Below, one piece after another: positions 11,285 to 19,758 of a stretch of 64,000 bases of DNA. The notes under the pieces were generated by a model. The model did not search any database. It saw nothing but the letters and a program-made list of their open reading frames with translations, and had not been told where the DNA came from. The stretch spans positions 62,001 through 126,000 of the forward strand of contig NZ_JAUHHF010000002.1 of assembly GCF_030410395.1 (NCBI RefSeq). Reading direction: 5' to 3'. The position numbers and the translations under genes were made by a program. Position 1 is the first letter of the stretch. Each line of letters opens with the position of its first letter. This DNA comes from Zwartia panacis (GTDB lineage Bacteria > Pseudomonadota > Gammaproteobacteria > Burkholderiales > Burkholderiaceae_B).

Positions 11285-11310
11285 AAAGCCCCGCTATCTA
11301 CGGGGCTTTT
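11285..11310 (+). terminator. Intrinsic terminator of the small lipoprotein gene
   Basis: Arms AAAGCCCCG (11285-11293) and CGGGGCTTT (11301-11309) with a 7-nt loop are followed by one more T and, after GA, another T-run. The loop and right arm overlap the stop codon and last codons of the convergent minus-strand AcpS/acyltransferase gene. Confidence 0.85.
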
Positions 11311-12544
11311 GATTTTTCCAGCGACGGTGCACCCACCACCATTGCTCAGGATGCCGAACGATGGAGAGCTCAATGGCCTGGTTATAGGCTCGGGTATTTT
11401 TGATGATTTCCTGACCGACATCGTCATCAAGCAGCGGCTTGAGCGGCGCGAAAAATTTAAGGACATGCGTACCGTCGGGCTCTCGCCACGAAGCGGCAGG
11501 GATGACGGGTGCGCCGGTCGCCATGGCAATCACAGCCATGCTTTTATAGGTGCCCGCCGCTTGCCCAAAAAACTCGACTTCGATGCCTTCAGGTCGGCGT
11601 GCGTATTGATCAAAAGGAAACACGATCGCATCACCGGCCTCAATGGTCGAGACGATTTCTTCGAGCGATCCGCGCCGACCGACCACTCCAAAACCCGCCT
11701 GATTAAAACGTCTGGTGAGCAAGTCACTCAACCATTTGGGTTTGATCGGGCGTCTGAGAAAATGAATCCGCCCTTTGACCTGCGGAAAGTGCTCGATTCC
11801 CGCAACGGTGGAAACTTCGAAATTTCCAAAATGTCCGGTCAGAATCAAGATTCCCCGACCGGCTTCGAAAGCCTCGATCATCCCCGGAACACCCTCGACA
11901 CGAACGATAGATTTTTTACGTGCCGCCGATAAAAATCGAAACTGGATAAGCTCTTTGAGTAGCTTGAGCAAATGGCCGTAGTGCGCCTGGGCTAGCAAGT
12001 CTATTTGAGAGGCCTCTACATTGGCGCCATACACGCGATTGAGGTTTTCTAAAATCACTTTGCGGCGATACGGTAACCAGCGGAAAATAAAACGACCGCC
12101 CCAGGATGGCTTGATCGTGCGCTGAATACGCAAAGCGACAGCTGTTGCCGTCGTTTCGCTATGTGTGAGTGATATTTTGATTTCGGCCACAAGGTGGCGC
12201 CCAAGCACGATTTCAGCTGCGGGCGTCACAGATATATGAGGAGCCCCATATTCATCCTTGACGACGGAGAAATCCATCGCAGTGATGGTGTTCAAAGCCG
12301 TCTCGCGTGGAAAGAGCTTCAGACAAGCTTCTTTTGCCGCGAATCGCGCGGCCAGACTAGCGATGCGGCCAGGCCCCTGTCCAGCATCCTCAATCTCTTG
12401 ATGCGAGAATAGCTTGTCGAGCTCGCCCGACATGGCCTCAACCAGACGCGCGACCCGCGCAATTTCAACGGTGTCGACTGCGCAACGATCGGGTGCAGTA
12501 TCGCTGACAGCCTCAGCAGCAGACAGGTGATTAGGTGTGGTCAC
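11294..12544 (-). CDS. Fused holo-ACP synthase (AcpS) - lysophospholipid/lipid A-type acyltransferase
   Basis: A bifunctional protein of 416 residues from a GTG at 12544, 5 nt past the preceding ketosynthase stop; an upstream ATG at 12610 is possible. Residues ~20-138 are an AcpS-type 4'-phosphopantetheinyl transferase, with the magnesium-binding Asp24 in AVDTVEIAR and Lys71-Glu72 in RFAAKEACLK. Residues ~145-410 are an LpxL/HtrB-type acyltransferase with the HX4E motif HFGNFE (His238, Glu243) and the later FPFDQYARRPEG segment. AcpS would load phosphopantetheine on a carrier protein; the second half would move an acyl chain from a carrier to a lipid. Both active sites look intact. It is the last gene of the acyl-chain cassette. 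The substrates are inferred. Confidence 0.86.
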   Translation of the reverse strand: MTTPNHLSAAEAVSDTAPDRCAVDTVEIARVARLVEAMSGELDKLFSHQEIEDAGQGPGRIASLAARFAAKEACLKLFPRETALNTITAMDFSVVKDEYGAPHISVTPAAEIVLGRHLVAEIKISLTHSETTATAVALRIQRTIKPSWGGRFIFRWLPYRRKVILENLNRVYGANVEASQIDLLAQAHYGHLLKLLKELIQFRFLSAARKKSIVRVEGVPGMIEAFEAGRGILILTGHFGNFEVSTVAGIEHFPQVKGRIHFLRRPIKPKWLSDLLTRRFNQAGFGVVGRRGSLEEIVSTIEAGDAIVFPFDQYARRPEGIEVEFFGQAAGTYKSMAVIAMATGAPVIPAASWREPDGTHVLKFFAPLKPLLDDDVGQEIIKNTRAYNQAIELSIVRHPEQWWWVHRRWKNQKPRR

Positions 12545-12549
12545 GCCAT

Positions 12550-13827
12550 TCAACGCGCGCGCGCAGCGCGCAGCAAGACAGCGGCATTTGTGCCTGCAAA
12601 ACCTCTGCACAACACCAAGACTACATCACTACGCGCGGGACGATTTTCTTTGCTGACATTGAGACCTGCGCAGGCAGGTGCGAGCTTGTCGAGCGTTGCG
12701 ATACCTGGCACAACATTACGACTGCAGGCCTCCAGCCCTAAAGCCACATCGATGGCGCCAGAAGCTGCAAAGAGGTGACCAATCGACCACTTGAAACCAG
12801 TGACGGGGGGCATGTCAGAACCAAATACGCGCAGAAGCGCAGCGGCCTCTGAACTGTCTGAGCCCTTTGTGCCATTGGCATGCGCAACGATCATGCCGAC
12901 ATCGGCAGGTTTCAAACCAGCATCGGCCAATGCACACTCGATCGCACGACTCAAACCATCTCCATCTGTGCGCACATCAAAGATGCCCTCGCCCTCAGAT
13001 GCGTCACCGCCACCGAGATATTCGCCCAACACCTTGGCACCACGTTCTTGGGCGGAAGCTTCTGTTTCCAGGACGAGCGAAGCTGCACCCTCACCCAGCA
13101 AGCAGCCATCATGGCGCTCATCGTAGGGACGCAACAAATCATTTGAAATCAGGCCGACTTTGTCGAGATAAAGAAGCGTTTGAGGTTCGATCGGCGCATC
13201 GTGTCCAATAGCCACGACGCGTTGTGCATCGCCCTCACGCAACGCCCAAGCACTCTCGATCACGGAGAGCACGCCACTCGTGGTGTGGTTAGTGATGCAA
13301 CCGTTGGGGCCTTTGAGCTGGTTACGAATACTCACATGGCAAAGCACGTTGTTCGGCAAAGAACGCAGGAGCCACATGGGATTGACCATGTTCGACAACT
13401 CTTGGCCGAACTTGGGCAAACTCCCACCCGTCTCAGCCATCAAGGGGAAAAAATCATAGTTGACTTCAAACGCGCCACCACCAGATCCAACGTAACAGCC
13501 TGTCTGGTCTGCATAGTCATTTGCGGCTGACTCATCCAGCGTTTCGCGCCAGGCCGGCAACCCTGCCTGCTCAATCGCCTGGGTACCCGCGTAAATACCA
13601 AATACATCGGAACGTCTGACCAGCTTGAGCAACTTGCGATCGCCCAGCAATTTGCCGCCGTTGTAGTCCTTGACCTCAGCGGCCAGCTTGCCCACCCAGG
13701 TCTGGGCATCCCAGGCTGAAATGGGAGCCAGAGCAGATTGGCCCTCAAGCAATGCATCCACAATGCTGGCTGGATCTTGGCCTGCGCCACAAATCGCACT
13801 ATTTCCGGTGATTACGATACGGGTCAT
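12550..13827 (-). CDS. Beta-ketoacyl synthase homologue lacking the active cysteine (chain-length-factor-like)
   Basis: A 425-residue thiolase-fold protein of the FabF/KAS family, from the ATG at 13827, 5 nt past the previous gene's stop, with AGGACGG upstream; the frame is open further. The nucleophile motif TACASG is replaced by NHTTSG, so the catalytic cysteine is Thr182. The other catalytic residues are kept (His316 in VAHANGTKGSD, Lys346 and His351 in FKWSIGHLFAASG). Losing only the cysteine while keeping the fold is typical of chain-length factors, the inactive partner in type II polyketide KS heterodimers. It most likely pairs with the active ketosynthase encoded immediately upstream. 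Decarboxylation or a structural role is possible. Confidence 0.88.
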   Translation of the reverse strand: MTRIVITGNSAICGAGQDPASIVDALLEGQSALAPISAWDAQTWVGKLAAEVKDYNGGKLLGDRKLLKLVRRSDVFGIYAGTQAIEQAGLPAWRETLDESAANDYADQTGCYVGSGGGAFEVNYDFFPLMAETGGSLPKFGQELSNMVNPMWLLRSLPNNVLCHVSIRNQLKGPNGCITNHTTSGVLSVIESAWALREGDAQRVVAIGHDAPIEPQTLLYLDKVGLISNDLLRPYDERHDGCLLGEGAASLVLETEASAQERGAKVLGEYLGGGDASEGEGIFDVRTDGDGLSRAIECALADAGLKPADVGMIVAHANGTKGSDSSEAAALLRVFGSDMPPVTGFKWSIGHLFAASGAIDVALGLEACSRNVVPGIATLDKLAPACAGLNVSKENRPARSDVVLVLCRGFAGTNAAVLLRAARAR

Positions 13828-13832
13828 CACTA

Positions 13833-15146
13833 TTACCGTCCTGCAGCGATCAACGCTGCGGTTTCTTCGGGGTGACGGAAAGCCAGACAACTATTGCTGC
13901 CACCAAAGCCGAGTGAATTAGAGAGTGCCATGCCGATGCGCGCTGGACGCGGTACGTCACGAACGATATCGACATCGCAATCGGGATCGAGTTCTCGCAA
14001 GTTCGCGCTGGGAGGCATCAAGCCATCCCGAATCGCCAGCGCACAAAAACCCGCTTCAACGGCGCCAGCAGCGGCAATCAGATGACCCGTCACGCTCTTG
14101 GTCGAGCTCACACCCACTTGTTTGGCGCGTTCGCCAAATACGGCATGAACAGCCGCGCATTCGCTTCGATCATTCATCGGCGTAGAAGTGCCGTGCGCAT
14201 TCAAATAATGAATATCTTGCTCCGTGGCACCCGCATCGTAAATAGCGCGACGCATGGCCTGAATCGGCCCATCACCCGAGGGGTGTGAGTCCGTGATCCG
14301 GTATGACGACAGGGAGTTTCCATCTCCTGCCAGTTCAGCGTAAATGGTCGCGCCGCGTTGAACGGCGCTATTCCATTCTTCGAGAACGAGAAAGCCAGCA
14401 CCTTCGCCTAAAACGAAACCATTACGCGTCAAATCAAAGGGACGGCTCGCACGCTCTGGAGCGTCATTGTCCGGCGAAACCGCTGATAGCAAACAGAAGC
14501 CAGATAAACCAACGGGCGAAATCATTGAATCAAAACCACCGGTTAGCACGCGGTCCGCGACACCTCGACGAATCAACCTCAGCGCCGTGCCAATGGCTTG
14601 ACCGCCTGAGGCACATGCAGTGTGAACAGTCGAGGCATAACCCCTGATTCCGAAACGACGCAAGAGCAGCGACACGCCAGCGGTCGAAAGGCTGCGGCTA
14701 AATGCCATCACATCATTGGCGACCGGCTCGGCCAAAATAGCGGAAGGCTCAAACTCACCCTGAGGTGCCGCGGCTTGTTGAATGGCGGCGATCTCTTCGT
14801 GCGCGACAGTCATCATGCCCGCACCCACCACACACCCCCAGCGGGCGGCATCTTGCTGGGTTGGACGGATGCCGGCATCTGCCATTGCCTGGTCTGCAGC
14901 ACCGATCGCGAAACGATGTGCCCGGCTCGCATATTTAAGGAGCTTGCGATCATCCAAGGGAGGAAGATCATCAAATCCTTTCACCTCGGCGGCGATACGC
15001 GTGGAAAAACCAGACGCATCAAAAATAGTGATCGGACCTGCGCATCCCTTGGCGGCTTTGATACGCGCCCAAGTTGATGCCACATCCAGACCGGCTGGCG
15101 TGACCAGCCCAATGCCTGTAATCGCTACGCGACGTCTTGCGGTCAT
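13833..15146 (-). CDS. Beta-ketoacyl-ACP synthase (FabF-like), catalytically complete
   Basis: A 437-residue condensing enzyme of the FabF/KAS II family. All catalytic residues are visible: Cys178 in HTACASGG, His318 in NAHGTSTP, Lys350 and His355 in TKSVTGHLIAAAGA, and the C-terminal SNSLGFGGSNS loop. It would elongate an acyl chain on an acyl carrier protein with malonyl-ACP, losing CO2. Its ATG overlaps the stop codon of the dehydratase gene by 4 nt, and the cysteine-less homologue follows 5 nt downstream, so the two are probably made in equal amounts as a heterodimer. It is unlikely to be the housekeeping FabF, which normally sits beside fabD-fabG-acpP. Confidence 0.92.
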   Translation of the reverse strand: MTARRRVAITGIGLVTPAGLDVASTWARIKAAKGCAGPITIFDASGFSTRIAAEVKGFDDLPPLDDRKLLKYASRAHRFAIGAADQAMADAGIRPTQQDAARWGCVVGAGMMTVAHEEIAAIQQAAAPQGEFEPSAILAEPVANDVMAFSRSLSTAGVSLLLRRFGIRGYASTVHTACASGGQAIGTALRLIRRGVADRVLTGGFDSMISPVGLSGFCLLSAVSPDNDAPERASRPFDLTRNGFVLGEGAGFLVLEEWNSAVQRGATIYAELAGDGNSLSSYRITDSHPSGDGPIQAMRRAIYDAGATEQDIHYLNAHGTSTPMNDRSECAAVHAVFGERAKQVGVSSTKSVTGHLIAAAGAVEAGFCALAIRDGLMPPSANLRELDPDCDVDIVRDVPRPARIGMALSNSLGFGGSNSCLAFRHPEETAALIAAGR

Positions 15147-16075
15147 GCGGTGTCTCCGGTGTCAGGCACAAAAAACATCTTGGCGCCTGCAATCGTGCGG
15201 CCCTCAGCCTGAGCGCCGACTTTGATCATAATAGGTTCGGATTCTGTCTGGCCAGATTCAGTGTGCTCGGCAAACAACGTGAGTGTCGCGCCCGGGGCTG
15301 TGAAGGCTCTGACTTTGACGTTCGTAATACTCTGGACGCGAACAGGCCCTGCAGCCTGCGCACTGGCCAAACGCTGCGCCAACTGAAGTTGAGCGTCGAG
15401 CAAAAGGGTGGCGGGAAAAACAGGACGGCGGGGAAAATGATCCAGGAAAAAATCAGCCTGCGCAGGCACAGATAAATGCGCCTCAAGACGCTGCGGAGTC
15501 GAACCCGGAATATCCTCAAGCACAGGACGCGGCACGCCCTTGAACGCGCCAGGCGCGCGACCAGCATGTGTCAAGAGGTCGAAATCCGCGCGTAGCGCAT
15601 CGGGCGCGTCAAACTCATGAATATCGAGCATCGAGCCCAAGGTATCGCTCAGCTCAAGGATCAGATTTCCGTCAACCAAGGCGCGTCCACGATACTGGAT
15701 CGACTCGGCATCGCAAGATTCAATCTCGACCACGAGTTCCAGTGTGTCGCCTGCACGCGGCAAACGATGCATCCTGGTATCTCCGGCCAAAGCAGCGACT
15801 GGACGATGCGTAAAATCGACCACCGACATCGCCACCCAGGCAGCGAGTTGTCCGATCGCTTCAGCAACCAGACTGACAGGAAAGTGGGAGACTTCAGGCG
15901 GGATAGTGTAGAGACCGCAAACGCGAGAGGTCCCTTCGATCTGGGTGATGCGATCAACGAACGAGAAAGCCGCGAAGCGACTCGAGCGACCCAAGCAACC
16001 CGAACCATCATTTGGCGAGGCCGAAGCGGCCTGCGCCATGGACTCAACCATATCAGCCAGCGGCTTGTGACTCAC
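15143..16075 (-). CDS. Double-hotdog 3-hydroxyacyl-ACP dehydratase-like protein
   Basis: A 310-residue protein made of two hotdog halves. The second half has HFPRRPVFPATLLLDAQ, in which His213 and Asp227 are 14 residues apart as in FabA/FabZ (FabA also uses Asp). The first half has SHFPVSLVAEAIGQ, with His64 and Glu72 only 8 apart: the PxxPG turn is deleted, so this half may be structural or specialised. The likely job is removal of water from 3-hydroxyacyl-ACP in the cassette's elongation cycle. The start drawn is a GTG that overlaps the ACP gene by 23 nt; an ATG at 16051, right at the ACP stop, is an equal candidate. The stop overlaps the ketosynthase start. Confidence 0.8.
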   Translation of the reverse strand: MSHKPLADMVESMAQAASASPNDGSGCLGRSSRFAAFSFVDRITQIEGTSRVCGLYTIPPEVSHFPVSLVAEAIGQLAAWVAMSVVDFTHRPVAALAGDTRMHRLPRAGDTLELVVEIESCDAESIQYRGRALVDGNLILELSDTLGSMLDIHEFDAPDALRADFDLLTHAGRAPGAFKGVPRPVLEDIPGSTPQRLEAHLSVPAQADFFLDHFPRRPVFPATLLLDAQLQLAQRLASAQAAGPVRVQSITNVKVRAFTAPGATLTLFAEHTESGQTESEPIMIKVGAQAEGRTIAGAKMFFVPDTGDTA

Positions 16076-16481
16076 GCTGAGCGCGGATCACGAGCTTGCA
16101 GAACGTTTCGGGTGTGTAGAGACGGGCGATGTGATCCACACGCATCGGTGTCTTGAAGCGAGAAGCGTCAATCTCAGACAAATACTCGCGCAAACGGGCC
16201 AAGCCCTTTTCAGTCAGAACACCATTTTCCTCGAACTCGGAAACGGGCATGTCGCCGCGTACATCCTCGATGATCTTGCCACGTGGCACTTTAATCTTAA
16301 AGGCACGCTCAAGACGGAAAACCATGTCTAGAAAGTCGATCGATTCGGCATCGAGGCCTTCGATCAGGGAGACATCGAGTTTGATGTCATCAACGTCACA
16401 GCCAAGTGCATCGGCCATCGTTTTTTGAACGGTCGGGAAAACCGCCATGATTTCTTCTTTCGAGATGACTGCTTCAGCCAT
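16053..16481 (-). CDS. Acyl carrier protein with C-terminal extension
   Basis: A 142-residue protein whose first ~85 residues form an ACP domain. The phosphopantetheine serine is Ser47 in GLDAESIDFLD, followed by the acidic helix II LDMVFRLERAFKIKVP. A normal ACP is ~78 residues; here about 55 further residues follow, predicted to be helical and ending in TPETFCKLVIRAQRES. The extension may dock to partner enzymes. The protein should be activated by an AcpS-type enzyme, and one is encoded at the end of this cassette. It begins 99 nt after the fabG stop codon, the largest gap inside the cassette. Confidence 0.9.
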   Translation of the reverse strand: MAEAVISKEEIMAVFPTVQKTMADALGCDVDDIKLDVSLIEGLDAESIDFLDMVFRLERAFKIKVPRGKIIEDVRGDMPVSEFEENGVLTEKGLARLREYLSEIDASRFKTPMRVDHIARLYTPETFCKLVIRAQRESQAAG

Positions 16482-16580
16482 GATTTACTCCGTATGTGTA
16501 TCAGCGCGCGCTATTTTAACCCAACTATCAGGGAAATCCCGCCCCGCGAAACCGCTTAGACAAGAGTGAATTCCCCTGTT

Positions 16581-17339
16581 TCAGCCCATTTTAAAACCGC
16601 CATCGACATAAAGAATCTGTCCGGTGACGTAGCCAGCCATGTCTGACACCAAGAATGCTACTGCATTTGCCACATCCTGAGCCGCACCATACCGTTTTAA
16701 CAGAATGTTGCCCTTTACCTCGTCTTCGGCCAAATCCCTGACTTGTTGGGACATTTCTGTCTCGATCACACCGGGTGCCACCGCATTGACCAGGATCTTG
16801 CGCGGTGCGAGTTCAACCGCCATCGCACGGGTTAAGGCATCGACCGCACCCTTGCTCGCGGCGTAATTTGCCTGCCCACGCCCAGCTTTGGCACCTGCGA
16901 CAGAGGAAAGATTGACAATTCGGCCGGCGCGCTGCGACATCATGTAAGGAATCACCGGGCGCGTGACGTTGAACACGCCGCCAACATTGGTGTTGAGGAC
17001 AGAAGAGATTTCCTCGTCTTCCATCGCGGCCATCAGGTTATCGCGCACAATTCCGGCATTGTTGACCAGAATATCAATCCGCTCGCAGCGGTCAGCAACG
17101 GCCTCGACCGCAGCAGCGCAGGCCGCCGCATCGCTGACATCGACTTGCACAGCCGTCGCCTGGCCACCTGCAGCAGAAACGGCTGCCACGACCTCGTCGG
17201 CCGCGGCTTGATTGCCTTTGAAGAAAAAAGTGACATTGACCCCTTCAGCCGCGAGTGTTTCCACGATCGCACGGCCAATTCCACGAGACCCACCGGTCAC
17301 AATCGCGACTTTTCCCGACAAACCTGATTTGAACGTCAT
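16581..17339 (-). CDS. fabG: 3-oxoacyl-ACP reductase (FabG-type SDR)
   Basis: A 252-residue classical short-chain dehydrogenase/reductase. The cofactor loop is TGGSRGIGRA, followed by LVNNAGIV, the catalytic serine in NLSSVAG and YAASK (YX3K), and the C-terminal GYVTGQILYVDGGF of FabG. It would reduce 3-oxoacyl-ACP to 3-hydroxyacyl-ACP with NADPH. The start at 17339 lies 5 nt after the stop of the FabL-like gene; the open frame continues upstream into that gene but the homology does not. The position between the enoyl reductase and ACP genes marks it as part of the dedicated cassette, separate from the housekeeping fabG usually found with fabD. Confidence 0.92.
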   Translation of the reverse strand: MTFKSGLSGKVAIVTGGSRGIGRAIVETLAAEGVNVTFFFKGNQAAADEVVAAVSAAGGQATAVQVDVSDAAACAAAVEAVADRCERIDILVNNAGIVRDNLMAAMEDEEISSVLNTNVGGVFNVTRPVIPYMMSQRAGRIVNLSSVAGAKAGRGQANYAASKGAVDALTRAMAVELAPRKILVNAVAPGVIETEMSQQVRDLAEDEVKGNILLKRYGAAQDVANAVAFLVSDMAGYVTGQILYVDGGFKMG

Positions 17340-17344
17340 GATTT

Positions 17345-18115
17345 TTAACCCGAAATGGCGAAACCGCCGTCGACAACCAAAGTATGTCCATTGACCCAGG
17401 CAGCCTCGGGCAAGCACAACAGATAGACCGCATCCGCGACATTGGCAGGCAATAAACTGGGGCCTGCTGGCGTACGCGCCGCGAATTCAGACAGCACTTG
17501 ATCGCGATTGGGAAAATGGCTCAACGCATCGGTATCGACCACACCGGCAGAAACGGTGTTGACACGGATACCGCGTGGACCCAGCTCTTGGGCAAGCGTG
17601 CGCACCAGGGACTCCAGTGCGGCTTTCGAGGCACCAATAAAACCATAATGCGGCATCGCGCGCTGGGCGCCAAGACTGGACATAGCAATAATTCGACCTC
17701 CGTTTTTCATCAACGGCGCGGCGTGCTGGGCCAGTAAATTCACCGCAAAGGCATTCGTCTCGAGACACCAGCGAAAATGCTTGAGTGTCATATCCATCGC
17801 GGGTTTGAGCACACCCGAAGCTGCATTGCTGATGACGATATCGAGATGACCAAACTCTTTGGTGATGACCTCGAACATTTCCGCCACGCTGTCTGGCACA
17901 CCAACGCTCGCCTGAACCGCGATCGCGCGTCGGCCCATGGCGCGCACCTCGGCGCACACCGCCTCGGCTTCGTCAGAGCTGTTGTAGTAGTTGGCAACGA
18001 TATCGCAACCGGCGGAGGCCAGTTTCAGGGCACATGCACGACCGATGCCGCGTGCGGCGCCGGTCACCAAAGCCACTTTACCTGACAGAGGCAGACTCAT
18101 CATGGGGGGGATCAC
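17345..18115 (-). CDS. FabL-like enoyl-ACP reductase (SDR)
   Basis: An SDR of ~252-256 residues that resembles Bacillus FabL more than FabG. It has TGAARGIGRA, the segment SNAASGVLKPAMDM, and an active-site pattern YGFIGASK, which is YX6K as in enoyl-ACP reductases rather than the YX3K of ketoreductases. The later DTDALSHFPNRD and RTPAGPS segments also match FabL as I remember it. It would reduce trans-2-enoyl-ACP to a saturated chain. Start is uncertain: GTG at 18115 or ATG at 18103 or 18100, none with a clear ribosome site. It is the first gene of the cassette and diverges from mmsA, so the 119-nt gap to 18235 should hold both promoters. Confidence 0.85.
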   Translation of the reverse strand: MIPPMMSLPLSGKVALVTGAARGIGRACALKLASAGCDIVANYYNSSDEAEAVCAEVRAMGRRAIAVQASVGVPDSVAEMFEVITKEFGHLDIVISNAASGVLKPAMDMTLKHFRWCLETNAFAVNLLAQHAAPLMKNGGRIIAMSSLGAQRAMPHYGFIGASKAALESLVRTLAQELGPRGIRVNTVSAGVVDTDALSHFPNRDQVLSEFAARTPAGPSLLPANVADAVYLLCLPEAAWVNGHTLVVDGGFAISG

Positions 18116-18234: not shown

Positions 18235-19758
18235 ATGTCCAAGCAGCCTCCAATGCCCGCCATTCCCGCCATCGTCTCCCAATGGATTCATGGCCAATCC
18301 GTCACGCACCCAGGGGCACGGACTCAGGATGTGTTCAACCCGGCGACTGGACAGGCCACCCGCAAAGTTGAACTTGCGACGCTGGAAACCGTCAACGAGG
18401 CTGTCGCGAGCGCAAAAGCCGCCTTCCCCGCCTGGTCGGACACCCCACCCATCCGCCGCGCCCGCATCATGAACAACTTTCTGGCGCTGCTCAATACTCA
18501 CAAGGATGAGCTCGCCTCGATCATCACCCAAGAGCACGGCAAGGTCTTTACCGACGCCCAAGGTGAGGTGATGCGCGGCATCGATATCGTCGAGTTCGCT
18601 TGCGGCATGCCCCAGTTGCTCAAAGGCGACTTCACGGATCAGGTGTCGACCGGCATTGACAACTGGACTTTGCGCCAGCCTCTTGGCGTGGTTGCGGGCA
18701 TTACCCCTTTCAACTTCCCATGCATGGTGCCTTGCTGGATGTTCCCGGTCGCGATTGCGGCAGGCAACTGTTTTGTACTCAAGCCGAGCGAACGCGACCC
18801 TTCCGCCTCGATTTTCATGGCTGAATTATTTAAAAAAGCCGGTCTTCCAGATGGCGTTTTCAACGTCGTCCAGGGTGACAAGGTCGCGGTTGACGGTTTG
18901 CTCGAGCATCCTGATGTCAAAGCCATCAGCTTTGTGGGTTCGACCCCGATTGCACAGTACATCTACCAGCGCGGCGCCGATCTCGGTAAACGCGTCCAAG
19001 CGCTTGGGGGTGCGAAAAACCACATGGTCGTCATGCCAGATGCGGATATCGAACAGGCGGTCGACGGACTGATTGGCGCGGCCTACGGTTCCGCCGGCGA
19101 GCGTTGCATGGCGATCTCCGTCGCGGTGCTGGTAGGTGATGTCGCCGACAAGATCGTGCCCTTGCTGGCCGAGCGCGCTAAAAAGCTCAAAATTAAAAAT
19201 GGACTGGAGCTCGACGCTGAAATGGGTCCGATCGTGACTCGCCAGGCTCTCGAGCGTATCGAGGGCTATATCGACATTGGCGTGAAAGAAGGCGCCAAAC
19301 TGGTGGTTGACGGTCGCGGCCTCAAGGTCCCCGGGCACGAGCAGGGTTTCTTTACCGGCGGTTCACTGTTTGACCATGTCACGCCCGAGATGCGCATCTA
19401 TAAAGAAGAAATTTTTGGACCTGTCCTGGGCTGCGTTCGAGTCAAGGATTTTGCACAGGCTGTCGATCTCATCAACGCCCATGAGTTTGGCAATGGCGTG
19501 TCTTGCTACACCCGCGATGGAAACGTCGCGCGTGAGTTTGGTCGCCGCATTCAGGTCGGCATGGTGGGTATCAATGTTCCCATCCCTGTGCCCATGGCCT
19601 GGCATGGTTTTGGTGGGTGGAAAAAGAGCTTGTTTGGCGACATGCATGCCTACGGCGAAGAGGGTGTGCGTTTCTACACCAAGCAAAAATCCATCATGCA
19701 GCGCTGGCCCGAAACCATCGGCAAGGGCGCTGAATTTGTCATGCCGACCGCCAAATAA
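18235..19758 (+). CDS. mmsA: CoA-acylating methylmalonate-semialdehyde dehydrogenase
   Basis: A 507-residue aldehyde dehydrogenase that converts methylmalonate semialdehyde (and malonate semialdehyde) with NAD and CoA to propionyl-CoA (or acetyl-CoA) and CO2, in valine, inositol or beta-alanine breakdown. Visible are Asn160 in ITPFNFP, the catalytic Cys291 in [11 protein letters not shown] and the [11 protein letters not shown] segment, where MmsA lacks the general-base Glu of ordinary aldehyde dehydrogenases. The end carries KSIMQRWP, typical of the family. AAAGGA lies 6 nt before the ATG. queC follows 14 nt downstream. No mmsB or inositol genes are in the window. Confidence 0.94.

What the first reader, a model, noticed from the sequence alone, without database searches (positions are those of the whole stretch)
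11294..18115. Self-contained seven-gene acyl-chain cassette ending in a fused AcpS/acyltransferase
Minus-strand genes for a FabL-like enoyl reductase, FabG, long ACP, double-hotdog dehydratase, an active ketosynthase, a ketosynthase homologue without its cysteine and a fused AcpS-acyltransferase follow each other with gaps of 0-5 nt or overlaps, apart from one 99-nt gap before the ACP gene. They cover a complete reductive elongation cycle plus carrier activation and lipid transfer. FabD and FabH functions would be borrowed from primary metabolism. Enoyl reduction, with no ammonia-lyase or export genes, argues against a classical aryl polyene. Inference: the cassette makes a special saturated or partly reduced acyl chain that is transferred to a glycerolipid or lipid A.
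Basis: partly seen in the sequence, partly recalled or inferred. Interest (0 to 1): 0.82.

Follow-up and report, generated by a model that had tools for sequence, protein, structure and literature searches.

The report
Extra fatty-chain assembly and transfer cassette
Seven neighbouring genes in a freshwater bacterium look like a private assembly line that builds a fully reduced fatty chain and attaches it to a membrane lipid, probably the lipid anchor of the cell-surface polysaccharide; it resembles the machinery rhizobia use for very long chains but seems to have been put together separately.

Summary
In detail: seven minus-strand genes (FabL-type enoyl reductase, FabG, 142-aa ACP, double-hotdog dehydratase, active KS, Cys-less KS, AcpS-LPLAT fusion) with gaps of -4 to +5 nt and one of 99 nt. 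Of 64 loci fetched with the fusion protein, 52 are cassette loci; 38 hold all seven genes in one order and the other 14 are cut by contig ends. The host, Zwartia-like, has separate FabF, FabI-like, AcpS-like and PF03279 genes, so this is an extra pathway. The nearest non-cassette relatives of the acyltransferase domain sit beside lpxA/lpxD/lpxB in the one Legionella locus annotated and in an Omnitrophica O-antigen locus, favouring lipid A over a glycerolipid. The gene set parallels the rhizobial acpXL...lpxXL cluster, whose FabF2XL also lacks the Cys, but KS phylogeny and curated cut-offs speak against membership. Best reading: an independently assembled, fully reducing acyl-chain and lipid A acylation cassette. 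Product unknown, acceptor inferred. Ten paper searches showed nothing on it. New variant of a known kind.

The parts
17345..18115 (-). FabL-type enoyl-ACP reductase (SDR, Y-x6-K); first gene, divergent from mmsA; ATG starts at 18103/18100 also possible
   Evidence: NF005975 FabL 338.7 bits, over its cut-off 328; best solved-structure sequence match 3oic, an enoyl-ACP reductase that aligns along the whole length, E 3e-63 (that it is B. subtilis FabL is recalled); Y-x6-K 38 of 38 loci
16581..17339 (-). FabG-type 3-ketoacyl-ACP reductase (ATG at 17339; the ORF runs to 17417)
   Evidence: NF009466 FabG subfamily 241.7 bits over its cut-off 222; TIGR01830 265.8, below its 297.75; YxxxK 38 of 38; start
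16053..16481 (-). 142-aa acyl carrier protein with a conserved ~65-aa C-terminal extension; phosphopantetheine Ser in AESID
   Evidence: PF00550 32.9 bits; 59-93% identity to 18 relatives, invariant S46
15143..16051 (-). double-hotdog protein, presumed 3-hydroxyacyl-ACP dehydratase; Glu in N half (AEAxGQLAAW), His and Asp in C half (DHF...LLLD)
   Evidence: PF07977 47.8 bits in the C half; alignment A2; AF2 model pLDDT 88.8, pTM 0.86; Foldseek top 2cf2_C, a FAS dehydratase domain, most further hits thioesterases
13833..15146 (-). KS1: active FabF-type ketosynthase (Cys-His-His)
   Evidence: NF005589 KAS II subfamily 413.7 bits over its cut-off 387; TIGR03150 429.3, below its 493.75; TACAS, NAHGT, TGHL at the three catalytic positions
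12550..13830 (-). KS2: full-length FabF homologue with Cys replaced by Thr/Ser/Ala, presumed KS partner (CLF-like)
   Evidence: PF00109/PF02801; own clade 100/100 in the KS tree; residues at the Cys position
11294..12544 (-). fusion: AcpS domain in front of an LpxL/LpxM-family acyltransferase (LPLAT) domain; GTG start at 12544, longer frame to 12610
   Evidence: TIGR00556 56.6 bits over cut-off 45.35; PF01648 27.3 over 25, PF03279 115.3 over 22.3; both motifs in one frame in 48 of 52 loci, three of the others cut by contig ends

Best explanation
A dedicated type II fatty-acid-synthase-like cassette. The AcpS half of the fusion loads phosphopantetheine on the long ACP; KS1, with Cys-less KS2 as partner, condenses malonyl units; FabG, the double-hotdog dehydratase and the FabL-type reductase fully reduce every round; the LPLAT half takes the finished saturated chain from the same ACP and puts it on a lipid A-type acceptor. 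It works like the rhizobial acpXL-fabZXL-fabF2XL-fabF1XL-lpxXL very-long-chain system but was assembled independently. Shown by sequence: the enzyme families, their motifs, gene order, conservation, presence of separate housekeeping genes. Inferred: KS1-KS2 pairing, full saturation, lipid A as acceptor. Guess: the chain is longer than the usual C14-C18.
For: All 38 complete loci keep the seven genes in one order. FabL-family reductase over its curated cut-off with Y-x6-K in 38 of 38. Own genome has a separate FabI-like gene (280 bits to the FabI model NF005717, under its cut-off of 337, which none of the 14 control genomes passed either), a FabF, two more PF01648 genes in frames of 147 and 251 aa, taken by length as AcpS and Sfp-type, and two more PF03279 genes, one in a 198-aa frame. 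LPLAT domain: 44% to a protein in an Omnitrophica O-antigen locus, 37% and 29% to two tandem Legionella LPLATs that in L086 stand beside lpxA, lpxD and lpxB, against 23% to two LPLATs of rhizobial-type clusters taken as LpxXL. LpxO-type gene directly downstream in 3 related loci. FabF2XL also lacks the Cys (Glu in 14 of 15 rows, two of which are the same gene; the 15th was misread). In 11 of the 25 non-own genomes hit by the dehydratase profile the hit is the FabZ next to FabF2XL (coordinates compared; only six first-look candidates a genome were scored). Legionella lipid A carries C28-C30 hydroxy/oxo acids (PMC7867332, passages).
Against: No product, lipid A structure or mutant is known. Published fatty acid profiles of Zwartia show nothing unusual (C16:0, cyclo-C17:0, 14:0 3-OH, 16:0 2-OH; PMC10535154, passages), though the MIDI method stops near C20 (recalled). 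By solved structures the LPLAT matches mycobacterial PIM acyltransferases best (E 1e-8), a lipid A acyltransferase less well (E 1e-5). The ACP scores higher with general ACP models (45 bits) than with the AcpXL-type model (35.6) and the LPLAT higher with PRK08419 (113) than with the LpxXL-type model (96.5). Foldseek neighbours of the dehydratase model after the first are mostly thioesterases. No lipid A gene was seen among the flanking ORFs of 4588-26726, most of which I read by eye only. Of 18 deep-branch loci laid out, 11 have an upstream condensation-fold/hydrolase cluster, hinting at another outlet.
Confidence: 0.52

Rival explanations
1. Same synthase, other acceptor: the reduced chain goes on a glycerolipid, ornithine/amino lipid or glycolipid of the envelope.
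For: Best solved relatives of the LPLAT are mycobacterial PIM acyltransferases; Zwartia vadi has unidentified phospholipids, an aminolipid and other lipids (PMC10535154, passages).
Against: Nearest non-cassette relatives found for the domain sit in LPS loci; LpxO-type neighbour in 3 loci.
Confidence: 0.22
2. Partly reduced or polyene product (aryl-polyene-, flexirubin- or highly-reducing type II PKS-like); the FabL-like SDR acts only in some rounds or is not an enoyl reductase.
For: KS plus chain length factor, dehydratase, FabG and LPLAT also occur in the APE locus; KS1 groups weakly (90/92) with a KS of a Streptomyces plasmid cluster that looks like a highly reducing type II PKS.
Against: FabL-family reductase with Y-x6-K in 38 of 38 loci; no APE-type synthetase, thioesterase or exporter gene within the operon; full-length KS2 instead of half-size ApeC; Z. 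hollandica unpigmented.
Confidence: 0.14
3. The chain is a precursor of a secreted or ester-linked lipid (lipopeptide, wax-like) made with a condensation-type enzyme; the LPLAT is one of two exits.
For: A cluster of a condensation-fold protein and a GHSQGG lipoprotein-like hydrolase stands upstream in 11 of the 21 loci laid out; by motif the first is seen in 7 loci and the second in 8; fold.
Against: Neither gene was found in the window's own genome (empty answers without a positive control). The LPLAT closes the cassette in all 38 complete loci, but loci were selected with it.
Confidence: 0.08
4. Relic or silent genes without a product.
For: Rare and patchy: full-length dehydratase in 3 of 300 genomes of the order and 1 of 398 of the phylum, own genome included in both (only the top 6-8 first-look candidates a genome were scored); one of seven same-genus genomes has no match to the fusion; one same-genus copy shows a TAA inside.
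Against: Motifs kept across deep divergence; ACP 59-93% identical.
Confidence: 0.04

Closest known systems
Rhizobial VLCFA cluster acpXL-fabZXL-fabF2XL-fabF1XL-(adh)-lpxXL (VLCFA on lipid A; PMC5613085, passages)
   Same: special ACP, FabZ-type dehydratase, active KS plus Cys-less KS, terminal LPLAT; order ACP-DH-KS/KS-LPLAT; FabZ next to FabF2XL is the hit of the dehydratase profile in 11 genomes
   Different: KS1 and KS2 do not group with FabF1XL/FabF2XL; own FabL-type reductase and AcpS; AcpS fused to LPLAT; double hotdog; order of the two KS genes swapped. FabG is not a clear difference: two of the five fetched alphaproteobacterial loci have a FabG-like SDR in the cluster
Aryl polyene (APE) cluster (E. 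coli CFT073)
   Same: KS with chain length factor, FabG, hotdog dehydratase, ACP, LPLAT
   Different: full-length KS2, one ACP, enoyl reductase present; no second active KS, thioesterase, acyl-CoA synthetase, glycosyltransferase, MMPL or LolA-family gene in the operon
FabL enoyl-ACP reductase (3oic; B. subtilis, recalled)
   Same: whole-length match E 3e-63, Y-x6-K spacing
   Different: in a Gram-negative operon, in a genome that also has a FabI-like gene
Legionella tandem LpxL-type acyltransferases (L086 and nine like it)
   Same: 29-37% identity over the LPLAT domain
   Different: two stand-alone genes; in L086 no AcpS domain and lpx genes around them; no other cassette gene in order near any of the ten
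Actinobacterial type II PKS KS/CLF
   Same: active KS followed by a KS-like partner
   Different: the two CLFs compared have Gln at the Cys position and neither His; separate clade

Membership tests
acpXL/lpxXL VLCFA cluster | AcpXL-family ACP (NF005079; that this model is AcpXL is recalled) | tested here: not met
   35.6 bits against cut-off 83
acpXL/lpxXL VLCFA cluster | FabF2XL-family KS (NF005084; identity recalled, supported by gene neighbours) | tested here: not met
   KS2 38 bits against cut-off 320; KS2 and FabF2XL in separate clades
acpXL/lpxXL VLCFA cluster | LpxXL-family acyltransferase (NF005120; identity recalled) | tested here: not met
   96.5 bits against cut-off 273; 23% identity to two presumed LpxXL
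acpXL/lpxXL VLCFA cluster | active KS paired with a Cys-less KS, plus dedicated ACP, DH and LPLAT in one cluster | tested here: met
acpXL/lpxXL VLCFA cluster | very long chain on lipid A | not testable with these tools
   needs lipid A mass spectrometry
Aryl polyene cluster | half-size CLF, second active KS, transporter and synthetase genes, no enoyl reductase | tested here: not met
   gene content compared with CFT073; KS2 is 426 aa from 13830; reductase present; genes outside the cassette partly identified by eye only
Flexirubin cluster | FlxB-type reductase (NF053542) | tested here: not met
   245.5 bits against cut-off 340
FabL enoyl-ACP reductase | curated model over cut-off and Y-x6-K | tested here: met
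   338.7 against 328; 38 of 38
FabL enoyl-ACP reductase | reduces trans-2-enoyl-ACP | not testable with these tools
   needs enzyme assay
Lipid A late acyltransferase (PF03279) | Pfam cut-off and HX4D/E catalytic motif | tested here: met
   115.3 bits against 22.3; GHFGNFE
Lipid A late acyltransferase (PF03279) | acts on lipid A | not testable with these tools
   supported only by relatives' neighbourhoods
Type II PKS chain length factor | Gln at the Cys position and membership of the CLF clade | tested here: not met
   T/S/A; separate clade from two Streptomyces CLFs

The most novel reading that the evidence does not exclude
A second, independent origin of very-long-chain (or otherwise special) lipid A acylation, in Betaproteobacteria: a fatty acid synthase in one operon that activates its own carrier, elongates and fully reduces on it, and hands the chain to lipid A through an acyltransferase covalently joined to the carrier-activating enzyme. 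KS2, which lacks the nucleophile but keeps the second His (a first His is aligned too, but its place is ambiguous), may also decarboxylate malonyl-ACP and so prime the chain without FabH.
Probability: 0.27. Interest if true: 0.78.

Novelty: new variant of a known kind. Interest (0 to 1): 0.6.

Why it matters
If right, Gram-negative bacteria evolved dedicated synthase-plus-acyltransferase cassettes for special lipid A chains at least twice from different FabF ancestors, each time pairing an active KS with a Cys-less one. The AcpS-LPLAT fusion would be a neat device: the enzyme that switches the carrier on is tied to the one that unloads it, insulating the pathway from housekeeping ACP. Cultured freshwater species with the cassette (Zwartia vadi, Z. 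hollandica, Jezberella montanilacus) make a gene deletion plus lipid A mass spectrum a direct test.

Tried and rejected
Membership in the acpXL/lpxXL cluster: rejected on family cut-offs and KS tree. Aryl polyene and flexirubin: rejected. Legionella as carriers of the cassette: rejected, only an LPLAT pair in the ten loci (one, L086, annotated). Claim that KS2 lost its first active-site His: dropped, the alignments put a His there though the local shift is ambiguous. FabL-like gene as the genome's only enoyl reductase: rejected, a FabI-like gene is present. The idea that the AcpS domain replaces an N-terminal piece of the LPLAT was dropped: PF03279 is matched from position 41 in the fusion but also from 41-51 in the stand-alone Legionella and Omnitrophica relatives.

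The LPLAT tree is not used: my script took the longest frame of a locus instead of the matched one for the own-genome and family rows, and those rows are wrong or unsure; only its BLAST lines for the window domain against the cassette, Omnitrophica, Legionella and presumed LpxXL rows are cited. The first longest-ORF neighbourhood failed in high-G+C loci and was replaced, itself approximate (antisense calls remain). ilvE near the cassette in both window and deep branches turned out to be only about 30% identical, so it is no shared synteny. The regex was too strict; one search replaced it; one of its 15 FabF2XL rows (L149) was read on the wrong strand, and two rows are the same gene. (companion genes in the own genome) had no positive control; the model has a cut-off that no control genome passed. 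Searches scored only the top first-look candidates of each genome.

Literature: ten searches (listings and abstract starts seen) showed no paper on this cassette; four papers were seen as passages only (PMC10535154, PMC7867332, PMC5613085, PMC8358021). Most subscription papers are not held, so absence in print is not shown.
Full report
WHAT IS THERE. Seven genes run on the minus strand from 18115 to 11294, divergent from mmsA (18235-19758, +). Domains: FabL-type reductase, FabG, ACP, double hotdog, KS1, KS2, AcpS-LPLAT. With the likely starts the stop-to-start distances are 5, 99, 1, -4, 2 or 5, and 5 nt.

HOST AND REDUNDANCY. The window is part of contig C22 of a 3.34-Mb, 54-contig genome. 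The closest named species for the fusion protein is Zwartia vadi (86%; Z. hollandica 76%, Jezberella montanilacus 71%; best segments), so the host is taken as Zwartia-like (Alcaligenaceae). It has two other PF01648 genes in frames of 147 and 251 aa (AcpS and Sfp-type by length), a second FabF-type KS outside the cassette at 43% identity to KS1, a FabI-like gene (280 bits, below the model's cut-off of 337, which none of the 14 control genomes passed) and two other PF03279 genes, one in a 198-aa frame. The cassette is therefore an extra pathway.

CONSERVATION. One search returned 64 loci with the fusion protein as query. Ten are Legionella or Legionellaceae LPLAT pairs, one an Omnitrophica LPLAT and one (L094, labelled Desulfobulbaceae) a contig-end fragment of 79% identity; these 12 were set aside. 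Of the remaining 52, 38 carry all seven genes in the same order; the other 14 begin inside the cassette at a contig end. In L081 the KS1 match is split in two pieces. tblastn identities of the window to the deep branches (L061-L076, L078-L079, L081-L082, L096, where covered) are 73-79% (reductase), 63-71% (FabG), 66-73% (KS1, L081 apart), 55-67% (KS2), 52-60% (fusion) and 42-52% (dehydratase); the ACP is 59-77% in the aligned ones. In 151 genomes of the family the long match is in 8: own, five more of the genus and two of another genus, the last two matched from residues 82 and 105 on; one of the seven same-genus genomes has none. The other matches listed cover the LPLAT part. A profile of the dehydratase finds a full-length match in 3 of 300 genomes of the order and 1 of 398 of the phylum, own included in both (only the top 6-8 first-look candidates a genome were scored). 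G554 and G785, the two others, carry the cassette (L164, L165; they may be the same records as L075 and L082). The cassette looks rare and scattered in Betaproteobacteria; one locus, L096, is titled a gammaproteobacterial MAG.

ENZYMES. The reductase passes the curated FabL model and keeps Y-x6-K, the spacing seen in 3oic. The dehydratase is a double hotdog (AF2 pLDDT 88.8; Foldseek top hit 2cf2_C, a FAS dehydratase domain, with high rmsd; most of the next hits are acyl-ACP or acyl-CoA thioesterases). Fold alone does not separate dehydratase from thioesterase; the FabA-family match and motif do. In alignment A2 the His of the C half (DHF) and the Glu of the N half (AEAxGQLAAW) are conserved, and the C half has an Asp in the FabA position, so one composite site is expected (the pairing rule is established knowledge of FabA/FabZ dimers). 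The ACP has the Ser and a further conserved ~65 residues. KS1 has Cys-His-His. KS2 has T, S or A at the Cys position in the 44 of 50 sequences caught by the pattern; it is full length. The fusion shows both the AcpS and the LPLAT motif in 48 of 52 loci; L080, L083 and L084 are cut and L077 has a shortened frame.

WHAT IT WORKS LIKE. In rhizobia the cluster acpXL, fabZXL, fabF1XL, fabF2XL, lpxXL makes a very long chain (C26 hydroxy in the Bradyrhizobium studied, 27-hydroxyoctacosanoic acid in R. leguminosarum) and puts it on lipid A (PMC5613085, passages). I fetched five loci of that type (identified by gene content, some incomplete in my gene calling). FabF2XL has Glu for Cys in 14 of 15 rows, two of them the same gene, so both systems pair an active KS with a Cys-less one. 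The dehydratase profile's hit in 11 of the 25 non-own genomes is the FabZ next to FabF2XL (coordinates). But in a 34-row KS tree KS1, KS2, FabF1XL and FabF2XL are four separate clades (each 100/100; deeper order unsure, long branches), and KS2, ACP and LPLAT fall far below the cut-offs of the corresponding curated models. The ACP scores better with general ACP models and the LPLAT with PRK08419. So: works like, is not a member.

ACCEPTOR. Outside the cassette loci the LPLAT domain is closest, among what one search found, to an Omnitrophica protein (44%) in a locus with O-antigen ligase, ABC-2 exporter and Wzt-type genes and to Legionella tandem LPLATs (37% and 29%) which in L086, the one annotated, stand beside lpxA, lpxD and lpxB. 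Legionella lipid A carries C28-C30 hydroxy/oxo chains (PMC7867332, passages); which enzyme transfers them I did not find. Two presumed LpxXL are 23% identical, one of them over part of the domain only. Three related deep-branch loci have an LpxO-type hydroxylase gene right after the fusion (L062 by Pfam, L061 and L071 by similarity), and four have a heptosyltransferase gene within 1.4 kb, which may be ordinary synteny. This favours lipid A but does not prove it; by sequence the best solved relatives are PIM acyltransferases.

AGAINST. Published fatty acid profiles of Zwartia show common acids only (PMC10535154, passages); chains above about C20 would escape that method (recalled). In 11 of 21 loci laid out (11 of the 18 deep-branch ones) a cluster of a condensation-fold protein (PF00668 only at E 0.0015-0.005, Foldseek condensation domains; model pLDDT only 64) and a GHSQGG lipoprotein-like protein precedes the cassette; neither was found in the window's genome (no positive control). 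They may mark a second outlet for the chain.

VERDICT. Real, conserved, extra to primary metabolism, and not seen in the ten paper searches. Most likely an independently assembled, fully reducing acyl-chain synthase with built-in carrier activation and transfer to lipid A (0.52). New variant of a known kind.

Noticed in passing
L064:1576-3971, L062:1966-4387, L078:721-3265 and similar: Two genes without a Pfam match over the curated cut-off precede the cassette in deep-branch Betaproteobacteria: a stand-alone condensation-fold protein and a lipoprotein-like GHSQGG hydrolase. The cluster appears in 11 of 21 loci laid out.
   Followed up: partly
L062:11366-12283, L061:11303-11922, L071:10996-12129: LpxO-type Asp/Arg hydroxylase gene directly after the fusion gene in three related loci.
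   Followed up: partly
L075, L078, L079, L081 downstream of the fusion: A heptosyltransferase (PF01075 in L075) gene lies about 0.1-1.4 kb downstream on the other strand in four loci.
   Followed up: partly
L086:6767-11642: In this Legionella locus lpxA-, lpxD- and lpxB-type genes stand beside two tandem LpxL-type genes that are relatives of the LPLAT domain.
   Followed up: partly
L038, L039, L041, L043, L050, L094: MAG contigs titled Bordetella parapertussis, Candidatus Methylopumilus or Desulfobulbaceae carry a Zwartia-like fusion gene at 74-79% identity; the labels or bins look wrong.
   Followed up: no
L006 (G144:C11:16113-17390): The fusion frame of this same-genus genome is reported with one TAA inside.
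   Followed up: no
window 16482-16580: The 99-nt gap before the ACP gene is 67-183 nt in the Zwartia/Jezberella-like loci but -4 to 19 nt in deeper branches; it may hold a regulatory element.
   Followed up: no
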